From assembly GCF_010730355.1 (NCBI RefSeq), contig NZ_AP022576.1, positions 620,001-684,000 on the forward strand: a stretch of 64,000 nt of DNA, written 5' to 3'. The first letter of the stretch is position 1, and each line of letters opens with the position of its first letter. The stretch comes from Mycobacterium florentinum (GTDB lineage: Bacteria; Actinomycetota; Actinomycetes; Mycobacteriales; Mycobacteriaceae). Both the position numbers and the translations under genes were made by a program. Shown in pieces: positions 18,373 through 56,872 of this stretch. Under the pieces are notes generated by a model. The model saw only the letters and a program-made list of their open reading frames with translations. It had not been told where the DNA came from and did not search any database.

Positions 18373-21198
<2,826 letters not shown>

Positions 21199-21240: not shown

Positions 21241-21450
21241 CTCTGTCCTTACCCAGTCACGGGCGCCTGAGAGATTCGGCGCGTAGTCCCCCCGAGCGCC
21301 TTTCCCCATCGGCGGGTGTACCGCACAAGGCGGCACCGCTTTCCAGAGGCATCGTTACCTTGACGCGGTCCGGGTGCCTGAGAGGTTGACGGAGAGGTGT
21401 TGCTCCTTCGGCGTCCATGGCTGGCGGCCATAGAACTCTCCCGCGCGGGC
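21241..21450 (-). ncRNA. Tandem glycine riboswitch
   Basis: On the minus strand, reading toward gcvB, two glycine aptamers follow each other. The first (about 21450-21360) contains GGGAGAGTTC, CGCCGAAGGAGCAA and CAACCTCTCAGGCACCCGGACCG. The second (about 21355-21241) contains CCTCTGGAAAGCG, CGCCGATGGGGAAAGGCG and CGAATCTCTCAGGC. These are the conserved cores of the gcvT/glycine riboswitch class, which normally occurs as a cooperative pair. The leader ends ~45 bp before the gcvB GTG. I see no clear terminator, so control may be at translation or by another mechanism. Confidence 0.92.
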
Positions 21451-21537
21451 GTGATGCAACGCTTAGTTTACCCGTGAGTGAAGCCCGGTACATGAAATAG
21501 CCCAACAATGCGTGTCGGGCTACCCAACAGTGGGTTA

Positions 21538-40109: not shown

Positions 40110-40820
40110 TTAGTCGGACTGAGTTTCGTCACCGGCATACCACTGCACCGCGCGAACCCCGGGTTGCAGGGACAGCTCGGCGACCAATCGCTCGAGCTTG
40201 GCCGGCGTATGACCATCCACGAGAAGGTGTGCGGTCAAAGTGATCTCGTCGTCGGCGGCCTGTCCGGTGTGGATGCCGCGCAGCGTGAGGTCGTTGCTGC
40301 TGGCGTGCTGGACCAGTTGTGCGCGGGCGTACTTCTCGGATTTCGGGCGGCAGATCGCCTGCACCAGGAACGGTTGACGGCCTTCGTCTTCTTCGGTGTT
40401 GTTGTCATGGTCGATCACCCGCCCGAGCGGCCGACCCACCACGTGGATGGTGATGACGGCCAGGGTGGCGATCAACGTGAACACCAGATTCCCGGAGGCG
40501 GCCAGTACACCTATCGCCGCGGAGCACCACAGGGTGGCGGCGGTGTTGAGGCCGCGGACGTTGACGCCCTCGCGCAGGATCACGCCACCGCCAAGGAACC
40601 CGATACCGGACACCACGTAGGACGCGACTCTGGTAGGGCTGCTGTCCGGGGTGGCGACCGCGTACAGCACGAACAAGGTCGCACCCGCGGCGACCAGCGC
40701 GTTCGTCCGCAGACCGGCCCTGCGCGCTCGCCATTGCCGTTCCATGCCGACCAGGGCGCCGCAGCCCACCCCGACGCCCAGCCGGAGCGCGAAATCGGCG
40801 ACGCTCAGCGTCTGCGTCAT
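40110..40820 (-). CDS. mgtC: MgtC family membrane protein
   Basis: 236 aa. The N-terminal MgtC/SapB domain (~1-135) has four to five membrane helices (ALRLGVGVGCGALVGMERQWRA, YVVSGIGFLGGGVILREG, NTAATLWCSAAIGVLAA). The C-terminal cytosolic ACT-like domain (~150-236) ends AELSLQPGVRAVQWYAGDE. MgtC is needed for growth in low Mg2+ and in macrophages; it modulates ATP synthase or phosphate balance in Salmonella and is a virulence factor in M. tuberculosis (Rv1811). ATG 40820 follows AAGGAG. It lies just downstream of the PPE block headed by an M-box. Confidence 0.95.
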   Translation of the reverse strand: MTQTLSVADFALRLGVGVGCGALVGMERQWRARRAGLRTNALVAAGATLFVLYAVATPDSSPTRVASYVVSGIGFLGGGVILREGVNVRGLNTAATLWCSAAIGVLAASGNLVFTLIATLAVITIHVVGRPLGRVIDHDNNTEEDEGRQPFLVQAICRPKSEKYARAQLVQHASSNDLTLRGIHTGQAADDEITLTAHLLVDGHTPAKLERLVAELSLQPGVRAVQWYAGDETQSD

Positions 40821-40978
40821 ACCGGACTCCTTCCCCCGACGACGGGCCCCCGCCCTGCGGCCATACCGGCAGCGACCAGCCTGCCACGCGCAGGTGAACA
40901 GTAGATGGCTCCAGGCCACGCCGGTCCACCGACGGCCATCCCCGCGCAACCTCGGCGCGGGAGGTGGTTGGGCCGTCG

Positions 40979-41701: not shown

Positions 41702-43111
41702 CTAACCTAATTGCGCTTCTTCGGACGGGATGACCTTGGACTTGCCCTTTTTCAGGTGCACCGCGTGGATTCCGGGCTTCTTGGCTAGCTGCTCGAGCAG
41801 CGCATCGAGACCTTCCTGATCTACGTTATGGTGCTGCACTGCTTCGGGCTTCTCCGAAATCTCTGCGACCAGACGCTTCAGGTGCTCGGGCGAGTTTTTG
41901 TCCTTGAGGTCCTTGAGCGGTTTCATCCGGTTGCGGATGCTTGCGTTCACCACGGTGGGACCGCCGGCGCCCATCGCGCTGCCCAACATTCCCGCCATTC
42001 CCAGCGAGCTGAACAGGCTGCCTTCCCCGAGCGCGGCTGCGGGAATCGCCTCGGGCCCGGCGGCCGTCAAGGCGGCCGCCACTGTCCGGATGGCCGGGGT
42101 GGCCGAGGCCCAACTCGGCGGGACCGTCAACGAGCCCACCAGGGTGCCGCGCGCGAAACCGGCTGTCGGGCTTATTGCGTCGAACAGCGTGCCCCGGGTG
42201 AAGCCCAGCGCACCGAGACCGGCGCCCAGCGCGTCCTTGGGGAGCGCGCCGTATGCCACCGGTGGCGCGAACTTGAGCCATTGCGACACCGGGAAGTTGA
42301 TCAGCAGCCCGATGTCGTTGAACTGCGTGGTCAGGCCGATCGGCACCTTGACGGCGTTGTACATCGCCGTATAGAAATTCGCCCCGCCCGGGATGATGTT
42401 CAGCAGATTCGTCCAGAAGTTCTGGTAGGCAGTGGCGATGTCGGCAAGGCCGGCCAGCGGCCCGGTGGCGCCGGTCGCAGTGGTGGCCAACTGGGTTGTT
42501 CCTGCCAGCTTGGATACCACATTGCCGGCTGCGTTGCTCGTGGACTGGGTCAGCGCGGCCGCCTGCATCGTCGTGCCCGCCTCGTTGGTGGTCTGCGGCG
42601 CCGGGCTGAACTCCTCCAGGTTGTTGGAGGTGGTGGCCGAGGAGGCGAAGTAGGTGTCCATCGCCTCGGCATCTTGGGCCCACATTTCGCCGTATTGAGC
42701 CTCGGTGGCCGCGATCGCCCCGGTGTTCTGCCCGAAGAGGTTGCTCGCCATCAGCTCGGCCAGCAGTTCACGGTTGGCCGCGATCAGCGGCGGCGGTACG
42801 TGTGCGGCGAACGCCGTCTCATAGGCGGCCGCCGCCTCGGTGGCCTGGGCCGCAGTCTGCGCGGCCTGGGTGGCGGTTTGCTGCATCCAGGCCACGTAGG
42901 GCGTGGCGGCGGACGCCATGGCCAGCGAGGACGGGCCCACCCAGGGTCCGGTGGTCAGATTCGACAGCACCGACGAGTATGCGGTCGCCGCGGCCTGCAG
43001 CTCGGCGGCCAGGTTCTCCCAAGCCGTGGCCGCCGCAACCAGCGACTCTGCCCCCGGACCGGCGTACATCCGGCCCGAGTTGAACTCCGGTGGAAAGGCT
43101 CCATAAAACAT
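41702..43111 (-). CDS. PPE-SVP family protein with charged C-terminal extension
   Basis: 469 aa. PPE domain (~1-175) with PPE at 8-10, WMQQTATQAAQTA in the helical core and the WAQDAEAM tail. The SVP-type motif appears as VGSLTVPPSW (~330). Unlike its neighbours it does not stop at the usual PPE C-terminus but continues with ~74 highly charged residues (from MKPLKDLKDK) containing two similar ~22-residue units. Expected to be an ESX-5 substrate paired with a PE protein; no PE gene is adjacent. It resembles M. tuberculosis PPE33 (Rv1809) in place and length. A ribosome site (AAGGGG) precedes ATG 43111. Confidence 0.88.
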   Translation of the reverse strand: MFYGAFPPEFNSGRMYAGPGAESLVAAATAWENLAAELQAAATAYSSVLSNLTTGPWVGPSSLAMASAATPYVAWMQQTATQAAQTAAQATEAAAAYETAFAAHVPPPLIAANRELLAELMASNLFGQNTGAIAATEAQYGEMWAQDAEAMDTYFASSATTSNNLEEFSPAPQTTNEAGTTMQAAALTQSTSNAAGNVVSKLAGTTQLATTATGATGPLAGLADIATAYQNFWTNLLNIIPGGANFYTAMYNAVKVPIGLTTQFNDIGLLINFPVSQWLKFAPPVAYGALPKDALGAGLGALGFTRGTLFDAISPTAGFARGTLVGSLTVPPSWASATPAIRTVAAALTAAGPEAIPAAALGEGSLFSSLGMAGMLGSAMGAGGPTVVNASIRNRMKPLKDLKDKNSPEHLKRLVAEISEKPEAVQHHNVDQEGLDALLEQLAKKPGIHAVHLKKGKSKVIPSEEAQLG

Positions 43112-43184: not shown

Positions 43185-44417
43185 TCAGTCCTCCAGAGCC
43201 GGGATCACGATGATCGTGGCGGCGGCGGGGTCGGCCTCGGCAACAAGCCCACCCAGGGCCGCTGCCGTGGCGGCGTTGCCGCTTACCGTGTGGGTCGAGG
43301 TGGCGGCGACGGCACGACCCGCCAGGCTCGACAACGCCATCTGGCTGAAGACGCCTTCCTCGCCGATCATTGCCGCGGGCGCGGCCGACAAGTTGGCGGG
43401 CAGCGACTGCGCAAGCATCCTGATGTTCGGGGCCGCCTCGGTCCAGCCCTGGGGCACCGACATGCCTCCTACCAAAGCCGATTTGCCCATCGACCCGGTG
43501 ACCGGAGCTCCACTGACGGCGGAGCTCAGCATGGGGTGAACGGCGCTGGGCACCCTCATCAGCGGCTCCAACGCCCCCTTGATGGCTTTCGGCCCGGCCA
43601 GATAGGCCGCGGCACTTTGCCCGTTCTGACCCCAGGCGTAGGCCTGCCCGAACGACAGGAACGGGCCACCCGGGATCGAGGACCAGGACTGGGGCGAGAA
43701 CACCCCGGTGACGGCCGACCAAATGGTGTTCCAGTTCGTCACGGCGGGCGGCACCGTCAACCCCGCCGACGGATCGGCCGCCGCCGCGACATTCGTCGTC
43801 ACGGCCTGGGAAAGTTGCAGGGCGGTGCGGCTGCCCGAAGTGCTGCTGGACTGGGCCACCGCGGCCGCCTGCATCCCCGAACCGGAGTCGTTCGTGGTCC
43901 GCGGGGGCTCGGTGAACGGCTGCAGCTGCGACGCCGTCGCCGACGACCCGGCATACCCGTACATCGCGGCGGCGTCCTGCGCCCACATCTCCATGTACTG
44001 GGCTTCGGTGGCCGCGATAGCCGGAGTGTTCTGGCCCAGGATGTTGGTGGCGACCAACGACGCGAGCAGCGAGCGGTTGGCCGCGATGACGGGCGGCGGT
44101 ACCGTCGCCGCGAAGGCCGCCTCGTAGGCGCCCGCGGCGAGCTTGGCCTGGGTGGCCGCCTGTTCAGCCTGGGCTCCCGTCGTGCTCATCCACTGCACGT
44201 ACGGGGCCGCGGACGCGGCCATCGCGATCGAGGAGGGACCGGTCCACGGCCCGACGGACAGGTTTTGAATCGTCGAGCCGTACAGGGCCGCAGTCGAATA
44301 GAGCTCGGCAGCCAACTCGTCCCAGGCGGCCGCGGCGGCCAACAACGGCCCCGCACCCGCACCGACATACATTCGACCGGAGTTGATCTCCGGTGGTAAC
44401 GCCCCGAAGTCCAACAT
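43185..44417 (-). CDS. PPE-SVP family protein
   Basis: 410 aa. N-terminal PPE domain ([34 protein letters not shown]) with the [15 protein letters not shown] end of the core; SVP motif GGMSVPQGW (~340). The C-terminus is short and ends with hydrophobic residues ([12 protein letters not shown]) rather than the RPP.AG tail of the PPE genes to the right. ATG 44417 follows GGAGGTAAAA; an upstream in-frame Met at 44465 lacks a ribosome site. The next PPE gene starts 73 bp downstream, so the two are probably cotranscribed. Confidence 0.9.
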
Positions 44418-45012
44418 TTTTACCTCCGCTCCCTCATTTGGCCGCCATGGTAGGCGCGGTTTCACAGCCCTCGCCGCAAACGCGCCGCAGCTCTAATGAA
44501 ATACATCGAATCCACGTTGTATTACACGTGCTTAACGACAACAGGTTCATACTCTCCTGGCTGAAATTCCCCAAGATCCTCGTCCGGTCCAGCTTCGGGC
44601 GCGAGGCCCCAATATTGCAATCATTGTGGCCAGAAATTATGCGCGACGCGTTCCCGTCGGGTAATCGCGGTGTAAAAAAGAAATGTCATTGTGGTGAGCA
44701 CTCGTGTGAGAACGCAGGCGTGACACAGCTAACAGTGAGGACAACAAACTACCTGGTTACCCCAACTGTTGCCAGCACACAGCGACGGACCATGGGAGTC
44801 CGCCATATTGAGGCTTCGGCGAATACAGCGCCTGATCGATGCCAACCGCAATCGAGTTGCTTGCCATTCAATGTTATTGTCGCCGACTTGATCGCGAGTT
44901 CTTCGACCTCCCATCCTATAGCGCCGAATAATTTGCTTTAGGGAACACAAAAACACCCGAACATTGAGATTACCGTTCCCGATTTATGGACGAACTCAGA
45001 CGTCCATCAATT
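44418..45012 (-). other. AT-richer intergenic region upstream of the PPE pair
   Basis: 595 bp between the EsxN-family pseudogene and the PPE start, clearly lower in GC than the flanks, especially 44490-44720 and 44860-44980. I see no coding similarity on either strand; short open frames are without family features. It presumably holds the promoter of the PPE pair, and may be old decayed sequence or acquired DNA. Confidence 0.4.
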
Positions 45013-45297
45013 TCATACACAGCGACAATCGACGGCACGATTGGTGCTTGCCAAATTGCTGCCGATCGTCAAAACTTTTCGCCCGCAGGTATTCGCGTGG
45101 CAGTTTATGCCGTGGAAATTCAGGCCCGGCCGCGCGACGAACTCCCGGTGCGCCATTGCCCTGGCGTTGTCCCAAAAGCCCCCTGCGCCAAGCGCATCGC
45201 CCGGGCCGGACTAGGGCTCGGCCTCCGGTGCGGCGGCGTGCGCGCGGACCGGCACCCCGAGGTCGTCGAAGGCGCCGAATTTATAGGCAATGGTCAT
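45013..45297 (-). pseudogene. EsxN-family (WXG100) gene, full length but with a nonsense codon
   Basis: Minus-strand ATG 45297 opens MTIAYKFGAFDDLG and reaches TAG at codon 29 (45211-45213). Reading through gives exactly 94 codons to TGA 45015-45013, the length of EsxN. By hand, about 40 of 94 positions equal the intact esxN at 56588-56872, without a gap: RA.AA..EAE, GGFWDNA, EFVARPGLNF, ASTN.AV. The nonsense codon sits at EsxN Gln29 (CAG to TAG fits one change). The WXG turn is lost (W42-D-N instead of W-G-G). AGGGGAG precedes the ATG. There is no EsxM-like partner upstream, only 151 bp to the DUF732 stop. A decayed, strongly diverged esx paralogue inside the PPE block. Confidence 0.85.
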
Positions 45298-45448
45298 ACT
45301 GAGCTCCCCTACATTTCACCTAACGTAAACATGTAGAACTGCTACGAGGCTTATTGGCTTCTGAAGGTTCGCTGTGAGGGTTGGCGACTCAACAAAGTGC
45401 CGCGATCGGCGGTGGCCGAGAAGGTGTAACCGGGGCTGGCGCCCGCGG

Positions 45449-45805
45449 TTAGCCGCCCCCGCCGCCCCCGGCATCGCCGGTGCCAGGGTTGGTGCCGCCG
45501 CTGTCGGTGGAGAGGCGTTCGGGGCAGTAGGCCATGGCGGCCGCCTTGGCGAATTTGGCGGCGCTGGTCATCGTGAATGCGGGGTTGAGGTCGCGGATGT
45601 CGCGGATGATGTCCAGCTGCGACGTCCCGGAGTTGGCTAGGTCGCAGACTTTTTGGCCGGCTTTGATCGCATGCTCCGGATCGTGATAGGTGATGCCCGC
45701 GTTGTTGAGCGCTGCGAGGAAGGCGTCGTCAGCCGGATCGGCATGTGCCGGTGCGGCCAGGCCGATCAGGGTGACGACGCTTGCCAGAAATGGTAGGGCC
45801 TTCAT
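45449..45805 (-). CDS. Secreted DUF732 protein
   Basis: 118 aa: signal peptide (~1-22, ending AHA), DUF732 domain (DDAFLAALNNAGITYHDPEHAIKAGQKVC, FAKAAAMAYCPERL) with two conserved Cys, and a Gly-rich tail (GGTNPGTGDAGGGGGG). It follows the PPE stop by 6 bp and is almost certainly cotranscribed with the M-box-led PPE genes. Similar in size to M. tuberculosis Rv1810. ATG 45805. Confidence 0.9.
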   Translation of the reverse strand: MKALPFLASVVTLIGLAAPAHADPADDAFLAALNNAGITYHDPEHAIKAGQKVCDLANSGTSQLDIIRDIRDLNPAFTMTSAAKFAKAAAMAYCPERLSTDSGGTNPGTGDAGGGGGG

Positions 45806-48329: not shown

Positions 48330-48597
48330 CGGAGTTCTCCTCAGGAATAAGGGTGAGCCGGAGACGCGACCCTTGCCAGGACATACACCGATTGCGCAAC
48401 GTGGGTAGGCGACTCGGTGCAAGCCGATAGGCGAGAGCGACGCCATAGTCGGCTCGAACGAAACGTCATCGATCGAGAATATGGACTATCAGCGGGATTA
48501 ATTTCGTTCTCACCTCCTCATCGCCTGGGCACACCGAGATGCCATTTATTCTGCACGAAGAGGTGGGGACACCCGGCGCGTTCGCCGGATCCGGCAC
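48330..48597 (-). other. Leader segment between the M-box and the PE remnant
   Basis: 268 bp of untranslated leader, with no supported gene. A perfect palindrome GCCGGATCCGGC at 48584-48595 directly follows the M-box and could be part of its expression platform. The stretch around 48480-48550 is less GC-rich. Confidence 0.45.
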
Positions 48598-48765
48598 CCC
48601 TCTCATCAGAGCTTCGGCACCACACTGCGTATCCGGCGAAACGCCAGAAGCCACTTGGGCTCAACCCTTAAGCCGGGAAGAGCTGTCCTGACCCTGGGCG
48701 TCTTTCGACGTTTGGGGTCAGTGGCCTGTATCCGTAATGGAAGCCTCACCTAACGAGGTGCTTGC
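48598..48765 (-). ncRNA. M-box (ykoK) magnesium riboswitch
   Basis: Minus strand, reading toward the PPE genes: CCTCGTTAGGTGAGGCTTCC (48759-48740) is the conserved 5' core. Then come ACGGATACAGGCCACTGACC, the GTCGAAAGACGCCCAGGGTC segment, and at the 3' side GTGCCGAAGCTCTGATGAGAG. These match the conserved blocks and spacing of the M-box class, which folds when Mg2+ is bound and turns expression off. M. tuberculosis has an M-box before PE20 (Rv1806). The leader continues to the PE remnant and PPE genes, so these should be induced in low Mg2+. Confidence 0.87.
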
Positions 48766-48894: not shown

Positions 48895-50727
48895 CTAGCT
48901 CGACTTCTTCTCGGCGACTGCCGCGCTGAGGCCCTCGAGCAGGTCCTCCCCGCTGAGCTCCCTGAACCGAAGCAACTGAAGCTCGGTGAATTCGGTGGTG
49001 TCGGCGGCCAATACCGCGTCGAGGTCCTCGTCGTCGAGACGGAAACTCCGGTGGTCGCGGGCCTTCTCCACCACATTTCGCACGAAGCCGGCATTACCGA
49101 GCGTGTCGATTCCGCGAATCAAGTCCCCGTCCTCCGAGTAGCTCTCGTCGAGATAGAACCTGGTGTACGAGGGCAGCAGATCCTGCGCCGCCTCCTCGGT
49201 GATGACGTCTTCGTTCTCCTGGCCCATCAAGCGGGTCAGGGCGACCAGCTCGTCCGGCGTGTAGCTGAAGAACTCGATGACGGTCGAAAAGCGCCGGCGC
49301 AGACCCTGGTTCACCTCGAGCATCTTGTCCATCGCCTTGGCATAGCCGGCGCCGAAGACCACCAGATCGTCGCGATGGTTCTCCATGTACAGCAGCAACG
49401 TGTTGATGATCGCGTTGCCGTACGGGTCACCCTGTTGGTAGCCCTTTTCGTGCAACGTGTGCATCTCGTCGAAGAAGACGGCGCCGCCCAACGCTTCCTC
49501 GAGCATCTCCTCGGTGTTCTTCTCGGCGTCGGCCATGTAGCGGCCCAACAGCTTGGTCCGGCTGGTCTCCACCACCACGGGCTTGCGCAGCACGGTCAAC
49601 CCGCACAGCTGCTTGCTGAAAGCGCGTGCCACCGAGGTCTTTCCGGTCCCGGGCGGCCCGAGCAACAGGGTGTGGCGCGAGGTCACGGGCACCGGAAGGC
49701 CCATCTTCGCGCGGGCCAAATTCACCCTGGTCGTGGACTTGATGAGTTTGATCTCGCGCTTGGCTCGCTCCATGCCCAGCATGGCGTTGAGCTCCTCGTC
49801 GCCCTCTTCCAGGTATTTGGCCGCCGTCTCGGCCTGCCGGGCCGCCTCGTTCTCTTCCCGGGTCGGAGCGCTGTCCGGGTCCCATGGGTCGGTGCGGGCT
49901 TCGATGGTCTCCGGATCGGTCAGCACCAACTGGTAGTTGGGGTTGTCGAGGGCCTCGCGGGCCGGGCCGAACTTGGGGTCCCGCGAGTACACCCGGCGCA
50001 GCACCTCGACGGCTTCTTCCTCGCGTCCGAGGTGCCGCAGGCACATGCCCTGGGTGTACAGGGCGACGTTGGCCGCGCCCGGTACCCGATCCGCCTCGAT
50101 GGCGTCTTGGCTGCGCCGGACCGCCTCCTCGAACACGCCGAGCGACGCCAGCGCGGTGGTCGCCATCGCGGCGCCGGCGGCCTTCAACTCGGGGTTGCGC
50201 CAGATCTTTCCCTCGGGGAATTGTGCGAGCACGTCCGGCCATCGCCCGGCGCGGAAGTAGAGAATCCCGCGCACGTAGGCGATCAGCTCTTCGTCGATGG
50301 GCTGGCGGGGTTCGATGCCATCGAGCAGCTTGACGGCTTCCTCGTAGCGCTTCGCCTCCGCGAGCACTGCCGCGTACGCGCACGCGAGCGACTCCACGCT
50401 GAGGACCGCCAGCCGCAGAAACAACCCGTCGGAGACGTCGGGATGAAACTGCATTTCCGTGACACCGAGCCGACGGGTTTCCCAGCCGAACGTGCCGACC
50501 GCCGCCCAGGCACCGGAAACCACCTCGATGCTCTGGTCACCGGCCAGCAGCCGTGCCAGCCAGGCATCGCACATCGCCGGGTCGCGGGTGGTGGCCGTGG
50601 TGAACATCCGCAGCGCCACTTGCGGGTTGTGGCTGGGCTGCAGCCCGTTGACGGAGATTCCCGACGCCAACAGGCCGGCGACCATCGCGTTACGGGCGTC
50701 CTCCGCCGCCGATTGCGGGCGGCTCAT
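48895..50727 (-). CDS. eccA5: ESX-5 AAA+ ATPase EccA5
   Basis: 610 aa, equal to M. tuberculosis EccA5. N-terminal TPR-like helical repeats (~1-280), then a CbxX/CfqX-type AAA+ domain with Walker A GPPGTGKT (Lys363) and Walker [11 protein letters not shown] cytosolic factor that interacts with EspG chaperones and PPE substrates. ATG 50727 overlaps the eccE5 stop by 4 bp (ATGA). Last gene of the ESX-5 core on this side. Confidence 0.97.
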
Positions 50728-51923
50728 TGACCTGTAAGCAAGCGCTCAGCGCCCTCCCGCACCTGGCCTACCTGGAGCACTAAATCGTCGTCGGGAAGCA
50801 GACCCCGGGTGGGCACGACCAGCAACGGGCGAGTCGTCGGAGCGGGCAGGCTGGCGCGTACCGCGGCCAACTGGCGGCCGGTGAGCCGGTTGAGTCCGGA
50901 CGACACTCCCCTCGGCAGCCGGCTATCGCTGTGGTAACGCACCCAGCCCGAAACCTGGGGCCGGCCGTCGTCGGCGGTGAGCTGAATGGTCACCACGGTC
51001 GCCTCGGCGTCGGGCAGCCACAGCTCCTCCAGTGTCTCGGTGGTGATGTCCGACGGCGTCAACCAGAAGCTGGTCGCGAACCCGTTGAAGTGCTTGAGGT
51101 AACGCCAGCCGGGGCGGCTCCAGGTCGGTTCCAGGTCCGCCAGCACGGCACTGTCGACCTCGGCGATCCCCTCGGAGGTCAACGGCCGGGGCGTGCAACC
51201 GGGCGCGTCGAGATCCTGGACCAGCCGCTCGGTGGCCGCGACCAGCGTGGAAGCCAGCGAGTCACGGGCCGCGACCGCCGCGACGTTGGACTGCGGGTTC
51301 ATCCGCAGCACCAGCCAGGTGCGGCGCACGTACGACGCGGGCTGATCGCTGACCAGCCCCCACTCTTCGGGACCCAACTTGTCGAGTTTGGACAATTCGG
51401 CGGCATTGCCGCCACGGCGCATTTGCACCGAGACGATGTCGATGCCCTCGAGGTTGACGTCGAACTGGCGCAGGCCGGCGGCAGCCGAGCGAACCAGCAG
51501 GCTGGCCGGCGGCGCGCTCTTCTGGCGGTGGTGGCGCGAGGCCGGGTCGTCGTCGCCGTCCAGCGCGATCACGGTGACCAGGCGGCCGTCGTACTCGCGC
51601 ACCCCCACCTTGTCGCGTCCGAATCGGCGCTGGTAGTCGAGGGCGGGCGTGCACCCCGCGGCCAGCGTGGTGCCCGGGTCGGCGGACCAGTCCCACAGCC
51701 AGCCCGCCAAGCCGGAGGTCACGGTGAGGCCGTGATGGGTGACCAGCGACAGCAACGCGATGATCGCCGAGATGCCGACCCCCACCCACCAGGCGATGTG
51801 GTGCTCGCCCTGCCACGAGTCGGGGCAGTGACTGGCGATCAACAGGATGCCGACGATGACCAAGAACACGACCGTGACTCGCGCCCACGACAAGGACAAC
51901 CCAAACCTGCGCTGAGCCTTCAT
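50724..51923 (-). CDS. eccE5: ESX-5 membrane component EccE5
   Basis: 399 aa: two transmembrane helices near the N-terminus (~14-32 [15 protein letters not shown] and ~44-62 [17 protein letters not shown]), then a large EccE domain. It forms the outer rim of the EccBCDE membrane complex. ATG 51923 ([13 protein letters not shown]) lies 19 bp from the mycP5 stop. eccB5 and eccC5 are not in the window and probably lie beyond the right end. Confidence 0.95.
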
Positions 51924-56587: not shown

Positions 56588-56872
56588 TCAGGCCCAGCTG
56601 GACCCGACGGCGCTGTCGGTGCTGGCCATGTTGTTGCCGGCCGACTGCACCTTCTGCCCGTGCTGGTTGGCCTGCTCGTAGATCACCTGGAAGTTACGAC
56701 CCAACTGGGTGATGAACTCCTGGCACGCCACCGAACCGGCGCCACCCCAGAAGTCACCGGCAGCCAGCACATCGCGAACGATGGCCTGGTGCTCGGCCTC
56801 CAACGAAGCAGCCTGCGCGCGAATCAACGCACCGTGCGCGTCCACATCCCCGAACTGGTAGTTAATGCTCAT
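56588..56872 (-). CDS. esxN: WXG100 secreted protein EsxN
   Basis: 94 aa, Mtb9.9 family: helix-turn-helix hairpin with the WXG motif W42-G-G44 (FWGGAG), almost identical to M. tuberculosis EsxN (MSINYQFGDVDAHG, SSWA end). It forms a heterodimer with EsxM and is exported by ESX-5. A ribosome site (TTAGGAGAAAACGCT) precedes ATG 56872. Confidence 0.97.
   Translation of the reverse strand: MSINYQFGDVDAHGALIRAQAASLEAEHQAIVRDVLAAGDFWGGAGSVACQEFITQLGRNFQVIYEQANQHGQKVQSAGNNMASTDSAVGSSWA

What the first reader, a model, noticed from the sequence alone, without database searches (positions are those of the whole stretch)
45013..45297. Hidden EsxN-family gene with a single nonsense codon inside the M-box PPE block
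The frame is exactly 94 codons, gap-free with esxN at 56588-56872 (about 40 of 94 identical by hand), but codon 29 is TAG and the WXG turn is changed to W-D-N. Only one stop in such a diverged copy suggests it evolved as a functional paralogue before being lost, or that the stop is recent or read through. It lies away from any EsxM partner.
Basis: partly seen in the sequence, partly recalled or inferred. Interest (0 to 1): 0.75.

Follow-up and report, generated by a model that had tools for sequence, protein, structure and literature searches.

The report
Dead esx gene behind living promoter
The spot holds the long-dead remnant of a secreted-protein gene that many related mycobacteria have also lost, but the DNA in front of it has stayed almost unchanged, which suggests a switch that now serves the neighbouring genes.

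Summary
The frame is real: 45013-45297 (minus) aligns without gaps to EsxN (40 of 89 residues), with TAG at codon 29 and W-D-N for W-G-G. It is a neutral relic. Differences from ten syntenic relatives fall evenly on codon positions, before and after the stop (chi-square p 0.15-0.92), whereas esxN and DUF732 controls show strong third-position excess. The TAG is shared with three other species. Of 40 loci with the upstream block that I examined, only G001 and G038 hold an intact solo esx gene.

The surprise is that upstream block. The 90 bp at 45285-45374 differ by 4% from the two nearest copies, where the relic differs by 26-29%; the block persists where no esx remnant is detectable. It carries four triplets (CAG, CAG, AAG here/CAG elsewhere, CAG) at exact 11-bp steps, the layout of tandem OmpR/PhoB-family response-regulator sites. 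In G001 and G038 the order is eccA-block-esx-PPE-PPE-DUF732-MgtC. Best reading: a retained regulated promoter of PPE-PPE-MgtC whose first gene died. Binding and transcription are untested.

The parts
45013..45297 (-). esxN-family relic (pseudogene), 94-codon frame with one internal stop
45211..45213 (-). premature TAG, codon 29; shared with G361, G277, G235
45285..45376 (-). conserved block upstream of and just into the dead gene (operator/promoter, inferred)
   Evidence: divergence measured on 45285-45374
45339..45374 (-). four 11-bp-phased triplets: CAG 45372-45374, CAG 45361-45363, AAG 45350-45352, CAG 45339-45341
45322..45327 (-). TACGTT, fits the recalled mycobacterial -10 pattern TANNNT; starts 14 bp after the start of the fourth triplet
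   Evidence: function inferred; not found by the sigma-70 scan
45304..45310 (-). AGGGGAG, ribosome-site-like, 6 bases before the dead ATG
   Evidence: function inferred
45449..45805 (-). DUF732 protein (Rv1810-like by position), gene upstream of the block
43185..44417 (-). PPE-SVP gene, first intact gene after the relic (start placed at the conserved ATG)
41702..43111 (-). PPE-SVP gene
40110..40949 (-). MgtC gene, end of the putative unit
48591..48764 (-). M-box (magnesium) riboswitch upstream of PPE-PPE-DUF732
48895..50727 (-). EccA-type gene (taken as eccA5 from its neighbourhood; recalled naming)
56588..56872 (-). intact esxN (reference for the relic)

Best explanation
The frame is an old pseudogene of a solo EsxN-family gene that was the first gene after a regulated promoter lying downstream of eccA and ahead of PPE-PPE-(DUF732)-MgtC (ancestral order inferred from G001 and G038). 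The coding part has drifted neutrally in the window and its relatives and carries a stop shared with three other species (shown). The upstream block, four CAG-cored repeats one per 11 bp followed by a TANNNT-like box, is under purifying selection and has outlived the gene in most lineages examined (shown). It most likely is the binding array and promoter of an OmpR/PhoB-family response regulator (inferred from period and position), kept because it still drives the PPE-PPE-MgtC genes by transcription through the relic, which has become a leader (inferred). Which regulator binds is open; PhoP is the lead candidate only. The confidence given is for pseudogene plus retained functional cis element; I put the response-regulator reading at about 0.75 and the 'drives PPE-PPE-MgtC' step at about 0.5.
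For: Relic neutrality: chi-square p 0.15-0.92 for evenness over codon positions in ten relatives (one search gives 0.16-0.83 for eight of them from the counts), against 1/0/9, 4/1/17, 2/1/9 for esxN in 3 relatives and 47/27/200 summed over 8 relatives for DUF732. Relic divergence from G361 (69 of 270, 26%) is like DUF732 third positions (22 of 95). Shared stop: the window and three other species. Block: 4/90 differences to G361 and to G277 versus 69/270 and 79/272 in the relic (Fisher p 3e-6 and 2e-7) and versus DUF732 third positions (p 2e-4, 6e-5). Block kept in G338, where no esx match was found (4-8 differences of 60 to its seven group mates). Phasing: over the 39 loci counted, mean commonest-base frequency at the three triplet phases is 0.91/0.99/0.97 against 0.50-0.74 at the other eight phases; lag 11 gives the highest self-identity among lags 3-19 in both groups tested, 0.41 and 0.51. 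The whole pattern plus TANNNT occurs once in the 6.2-Mb genome even with one mismatch, control 0. OmpR/PhoB regulators bind direct repeats, PhoP as 7 bp + 4 bp, and PhoP bound three or four motifs in a row more tightly than two (PMC4832192, passages and section 13). Synteny eccA-block-esx-PPE-PPE-DUF732-MgtC in G001 and G038. No intrinsic terminator predicted at 44300-45500 (0 found, 1.7 expected in shuffles).
Against: No expression or binding data. The published PhoP consensus TCACAGC-N4-TCACAGC has no match here within 3 mismatches; only the first repeat reads TCACAGC. The sigma-70 promoter scan finds nothing on the minus strand at 44300-45500. The PPE after the relic has further conserved islands just upstream (44420-44770, 21-44% divergence), so it may have its own promoter. 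In the window an M-box leader further upstream may already serve the operon. Group B genomes lack a clean TANNNT at the expected place (TACTCG), and G031, G143, G242 and G173 deviate there too. The 11-bp idea arose after looking at the sequence; the lag-11 test (block-shuffle p 0.007) is not independent of that, the pattern was written from the site itself, and registers were set by matching typed consensus strings.
Confidence: 0.8

Rival explanations
1. The frame is a working gene whose stop is recent, strain-specific or read through, giving a divergent EsxN paralogue.
For: Gap-free 94-codon frame with one stop; EsxN-like residues kept on both sides.
Against: Stop shared with three other species; no codon-position bias before or after the stop; all ten aligned relatives carry indels relative to it; W-X-G turn lost.
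Confidence: 0.03
2. Plain pseudogene, and the upstream block is kept for a reason unrelated to the downstream genes, e.g. it shapes the 3' end or control of the upstream messages, or binds a nucleoid protein.
For: Block lies just after DUF732 in the window's group; the PPE downstream has other conserved islands; the sigma-70 scan sees no promoter in the block.
Against: In G001 and G038 the block follows eccA with no DUF732 or PPE between, so its persistence does not depend on those; the -10-like and ribosome-site-like parts sit on the esx/PPE strand.
Confidence: 0.25
3. The block makes a small RNA or short peptide (in the window group a 7-codon frame ATG...TAG lies inside it).
For: Block is conserved; the 7-codon frame has some silent changes among window-group species (read by eye).
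Against: Folding is no better than shuffled (z +0.81); no Rfam family there; the 7-codon frame is absent, by eye, from the other groups' blocks; conservation falls off after the dead start codon.
Confidence: 0.08
4. The solo copies were overwritten by gene conversion from canonical esxN, so their history is not that of the locus.
For: Three esxN copies in this genome are identical in protein, so conversion among esx copies happens.
Against: The window relic is only 44.9% identical to EsxN; the broken copies of G238 and G266 are closest to the G001 solo copy (89.7% and 86.9%) rather than to their own canonical copies (88.0/87.6% and 86.3/86.3%), though the margins are small.
Confidence: 0.04

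Closest known systems
EsxN / Mtb9.9 family of WXG100 proteins (esxI, L, N, O, V listed in PMC2763215, passages seen)
   Same: 94 codons, gap-free alignment, nearest solved relative 3ogi 'Putative ESAT-6-like protein 6'
   Different: Solo without EsxM partner, internal stop, W-D-N instead of W-x-G, neutral drift
pe20 - mgtC locus with M-box riboswitch (PMC12810186, passages seen)
   Same: M-box, PPE genes, DUF732/Rv1810-like, MgtC in one direction beside ESX genes
   Different: Here an esx relic and a conserved promoter-like block lie between DUF732 and two further PPE genes; the passages seen (12 of 19 places) mention no esx gene in this locus
M. tuberculosis PhoP operators, TCACAGC-N4-TCACAGC (PMC4832192, passages and section 13 seen)
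   Same: 11-bp period, CAG at the same register of the 7-bp motif, first repeat TCACAGC in the window group
   Different: Other repeats keep little beyond CAG; the double consensus is not met within 3 mismatches
Retained promoters in front of bacterial pseudogenes (general knowledge, recalled)
   Same: Dead coding sequence with upstream signals
   Different: Here the signals are strongly conserved across the 40 genomes examined (one with the left half lost) and persist where the gene is undetectable

Membership tests
WXG100 / EsxN family (functional member) | Sequence homology to EsxN over the length | tested here: met
   40 of 89 identical, no gap; piece E 2e-15
WXG100 / EsxN family (functional member) | Open reading frame of about 100 codons | tested here: not met
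   TAG at codon 29
WXG100 / EsxN family (functional member) | W-x-G turn | tested here: not met
   W-D-N
WXG100 / EsxN family (functional member) | Match to PF06013 or TIGR03930 | tested here: not met
   0 families for either piece; pieces are 28 and 65 residues, so the test is weak
WXG100 / EsxN family (functional member) | Adjacent CFP-10-type (EsxM) partner gene | tested here: not met
   No EsxM match in the window interval; G001 and G038 also show none at E 1e-5
Pseudogene | Disabling lesion at the syntenic place, shared or varied in relatives | tested here: met
   38 of 40 loci not intact (one of them, G164, open but shortened)
Pseudogene | No codon-position bias of substitutions | tested here: met
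   with esxN and DUF732 as controls
Pseudogene | No protein product | not testable with these tools
   needs proteomics or ribosome profiling
OmpR/PhoB-family tandem operator | Direct repeats about one helical turn (11 bp) apart | tested here: met
OmpR/PhoB-family tandem operator | Binding by a response regulator | not testable with these tools
   no binding data
PhoP operator | TCACAGC-N4-TCACAGC | tested here: not met
   none of the 5 window matches with up to 3 mismatches lies in the block
pe20-type M-box locus | M-box, PE, PPE genes, Rv1810-like, MgtC in one direction | tested here: inconclusive
   M-box, four PPE, DUF732, MgtC found; PE gene not identified (short frames not scanned for families)

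The most novel reading that the evidence does not exclude
A second input, not seen in the papers I searched, controls the magnesium/acid-linked PPE-MgtC locus of many mycobacteria: a four-site response-regulator promoter that once made a solo EsxN-type secreted protein. The esx gene has been lost again and again while the promoter was kept, so that a dead secreted-protein gene now serves as the leader of the PPE-PPE-MgtC message.
Probability: 0.4. Interest if true: 0.65.

Novelty: new variant of a known kind. Interest (0 to 1): 0.5.

Why it matters
It turns an apparent one-stop hidden gene into a recurrent gene loss that can be followed across species, and shows a cis element that outlives its gene in most of the 40 genomes examined. 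If it binds a response regulator, it names a concrete, testable second control (besides the M-box) of PPE-MgtC genes linked in print to growth in low magnesium and low pH, and it points to two genomes with an intact solo EsxN-type gene, a natural comparison for why that gene is dispensable.

Tried and rejected
Rejected: recent or read-through stop. Rejected: structured RNA in the block (fold z +0.81; no Rfam hit). Rejected: a lost EsxM partner in the window interval (no match; weak chance-like matches in some relatives, best E 0.07 in G061). Not supported: canonical PhoP box. MprA sites could not be compared (one search listed 5 papers, none opened; one search listed none). The downstream-PPE tree and the tree of the 941-residue ORF both place the window with G031 (support 0.93 and 0.98); G110 joins them only. 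Neither groups the window with the other three TAG bearers, so the TAG was overwritten in G110 and G031 or moved by recombination; I could not tell which. The named-genome scan gave one short match (Massilia agri, query residues 2-33), so species could not be named. Unexplained: spacer 44771-45012 is more diverged (40-60%) than the relic in nearly all relatives (26-57%), perhaps through alignment failure. Dropped before counts: G143 from the relic-plus-block tree; G217 from the phasing count (left half of block lost) while G250, out of register through an 8-base deletion, was kept; G103 (contig-edge fragment); 7 of the 16 regions (L094, L095, L099, L100, L105, L107, L108), where the DUF732 copy has no matching PPE downstream or the contig ends; none of the seven shows the block (best 10-13 mismatches of 29). 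For G269, whose DUF732 region L094 was dropped, the block was found elsewhere (L141, L174). In one search one query (the nearer downstream PPE) was mis-framed; one search repeated it correctly for 10 of the 18 loci.

Full report
What is there. On the minus strand 45297 down to 45013 reads a 94-codon frame with TAG at codon 29 and TGA at the end. Intact EsxN from the same window aligns to it over residues 1-89 without gaps, 40 of 89 identical; the 65-residue piece after the stop alone gives 26 of 56, E 2e-15, and matches the solved chain 3ogi_A, 'Putative ESAT-6-like protein 6' (E 8e-9). The tryptophan turn is W-D-N. The genome (G000, 6.22 Mb, one contig) holds three EsxN copies identical in protein plus this relic. 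Profile libraries do not see the pieces.

Setting. The relic lies in a magnesium-linked locus next to ESX genes: EccE and EccA (50724-51923, 48895-50727; taken as ESX-5 from recalled gene order), an M-box riboswitch (48591-48764), PPE, PPE, DUF732, the relic, PPE, PPE and MgtC (40110-40949), all on the minus strand. This resembles the pe20 locus described in PMC12810186 (passages seen: PE20, PPE31-33, Rv1810, MgtC under an M-box), except for the relic and the extra PPE genes; I did not identify a PE gene.

Sampling. Four genus searches each covered 396 genomes drawn evenly from a larger group. The window-type block was found in 13 of 396 and a homologous block of a second type in 27 of 396 (one, G103, a contig-edge fragment). 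With G173, reached through DUF732, that makes the 40 loci examined here, window included.

Age and mode of decay. Ten relatives with the order DUF732 - relic - PPE were aligned to the window. The TAG is shared with G361, G277 and G235. In a tree of the 941-residue ORF at 18373-21198 (21 relatives) those three form one group, while the window groups with G031 and G110, which do not carry it; so it predates that split or has moved, and either way is not private. Differences from the window fall evenly on the three codon positions in all ten (p 0.15-0.92), with no clear third-position excess before or after the stop, while esxN in three relatives gives 1/0/9, 4/1/17 and 2/1/9 and DUF732 over eight relatives gives 47/27/200. 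Relic divergence from G361 (69 of 270) is like DUF732 third positions (22 of 95). The single stop is what drift would give: 16 of 837 single changes in this frame make a stop. All ten relatives have indels relative to the window copy. G164 has an open but shortened frame (36-base deletion), also without codon bias against G076 (20/18/16).

Intact copies. Across the 40 loci an EsxN gene or remnant is detectable in 29 (18 of the 22 at E up to 0.05; 11 of the other 18 at E up to 0.01) and not in 11. Only two are complete: G038 and G001, 96.8% and 95.7% identical to the window's EsxN. These two differ from each other at 2/3/17 codon positions, so they look selected. G238 and G266 carry copies broken by a frame change (G266 also by a stop) but still 90% and 87% identical in DNA to the G001 solo gene: probably recent losses. 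In G001 and G038 the EccA gene (89% identical) lies immediately before the block, and the PPE after the solo gene is 72-75% identical to the PPE after the window relic; then follow PPE, DUF732, DUF732 and MgtC. No M-box was found in the 10 kb held for these. I infer that the window's M-box-PPE-PPE-DUF732 part came to lie between eccA and the block.

The conserved block. The 90 bases 45285-45374 differ at 4 of 90 from G361 and from G277, against 69/270 and 79/272 in the relic (Fisher 3e-6, 2e-7) and against DUF732 third positions (2e-4, 6e-5). Over ten relatives the block differs by 4-28%, the relic by 26-57%. In a second group of species the homologous block is kept even in G338, where no esx match was found (4-8 differences of 60 to seven group mates). 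It is single-copy in this genome (next match E 0.1).

Anatomy of the block. In the 39 loci counted (G217 left out; G250 counted although out of register), the commonest base at +0/+1/+2, +11/+12/+13, +23/+24 and +33/+34/+35 is C-A-G, C-A-G, A-G and C-A-G in 37-39 of 39; position +22 is C in 26 of 39, and A in the window group. By phase of the 11-bp period the mean commonest-base frequency is 0.91, 0.99 and 0.97, and 0.50-0.74 at the other eight phases. Lag 11 gives the highest self-identity among lags 3-19 in both groups tested (0.41, 0.51) and the highest autocorrelation of between-group agreement among lags 2-19 (0.32, block-shuffle p 0.007). A TANNNT box (TACGTT in the window) starts 14 bp after the start of the fourth triplet in most window-group and G001-like genomes; the second group has TACTCG one base further on, and G031, G143, G242 and G173 deviate. 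The full pattern occurs once in the genome with up to one mismatch, control none, but that pattern was written from the site.

Mechanism. Direct repeats one helical turn apart are the mark of OmpR/PhoB-family response regulators; M. tuberculosis PhoP binds 7-bp motifs with 4-bp spacers and bound three or four in a row more tightly than two (PMC4832192: passages and section 13). The first repeat in the window reads TCACAGC, PhoP's motif, but the double consensus is not met, so PhoP is a lead, not a result. An array ending just upstream of a -10 box is the arrangement of an activator-dependent promoter (general knowledge of PhoB-type promoters). No intrinsic terminator is predicted between block and PPE, but the sigma-70 scan also sees no promoter in the block. 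I infer a regulated promoter that once led with a solo esx gene and is now kept for PPE-PPE-MgtC. The further conserved islands at 44420-44770 could be a second promoter and are the main point against that last step.

What is in print. Searches for EsxN with pseudogene/ESX-5/duplication, Rv1810 with PPE33 and PhoP, M-box with PE20 and PPE31, esx pseudogene/noncoding terms, EsxN with mgtC, PhoP with mgtC and Rv1811 and response-regulator repeat terms listed no paper whose title or shown abstract concerns a solo esx relic or this block. Beyond listings I saw passages of five papers (PMC4832192, PMC12810186, PMC2763215, PMC3388012, PMC1660551), none read whole; subscription papers are mostly missing from the library.

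Noticed in passing
G000:C1:676591-676872, 5644516-5644797, 4883174-4883455: Three EsxN copies identical in protein, each beside a WXG100 gene of equal score (EsxM-like): concerted evolution.
   Followed up: no
window 44420-44770: Conserved islands upstream of the PPE gene, including a T-rich stretch and GTTAGCT..TCAC, more conserved than the spacer before them.
   Followed up: partly
window 45309-45332, minus: A 7-codon ATG...TAG frame inside the block, with some silent changes in the window group but absent by eye from the other groups' blocks; probably chance.
   Followed up: partly
window 21356-21453, minus: Glycine riboswitch upstream of the 941-residue ORF 18373-21198.
   Followed up: no
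L161 (G038) and L162 (G001): Intact solo EsxN-type gene between eccA and PPE-PPE-DUF732-DUF732-MgtC, no EsxM match beside it.
   Followed up: yes
L076 (G164), L163 (G238), L164 (G266): G164 has an open but shortened relic frame; G238 and G266 carry little-diverged broken copies: stages of the same loss.
   Followed up: partly
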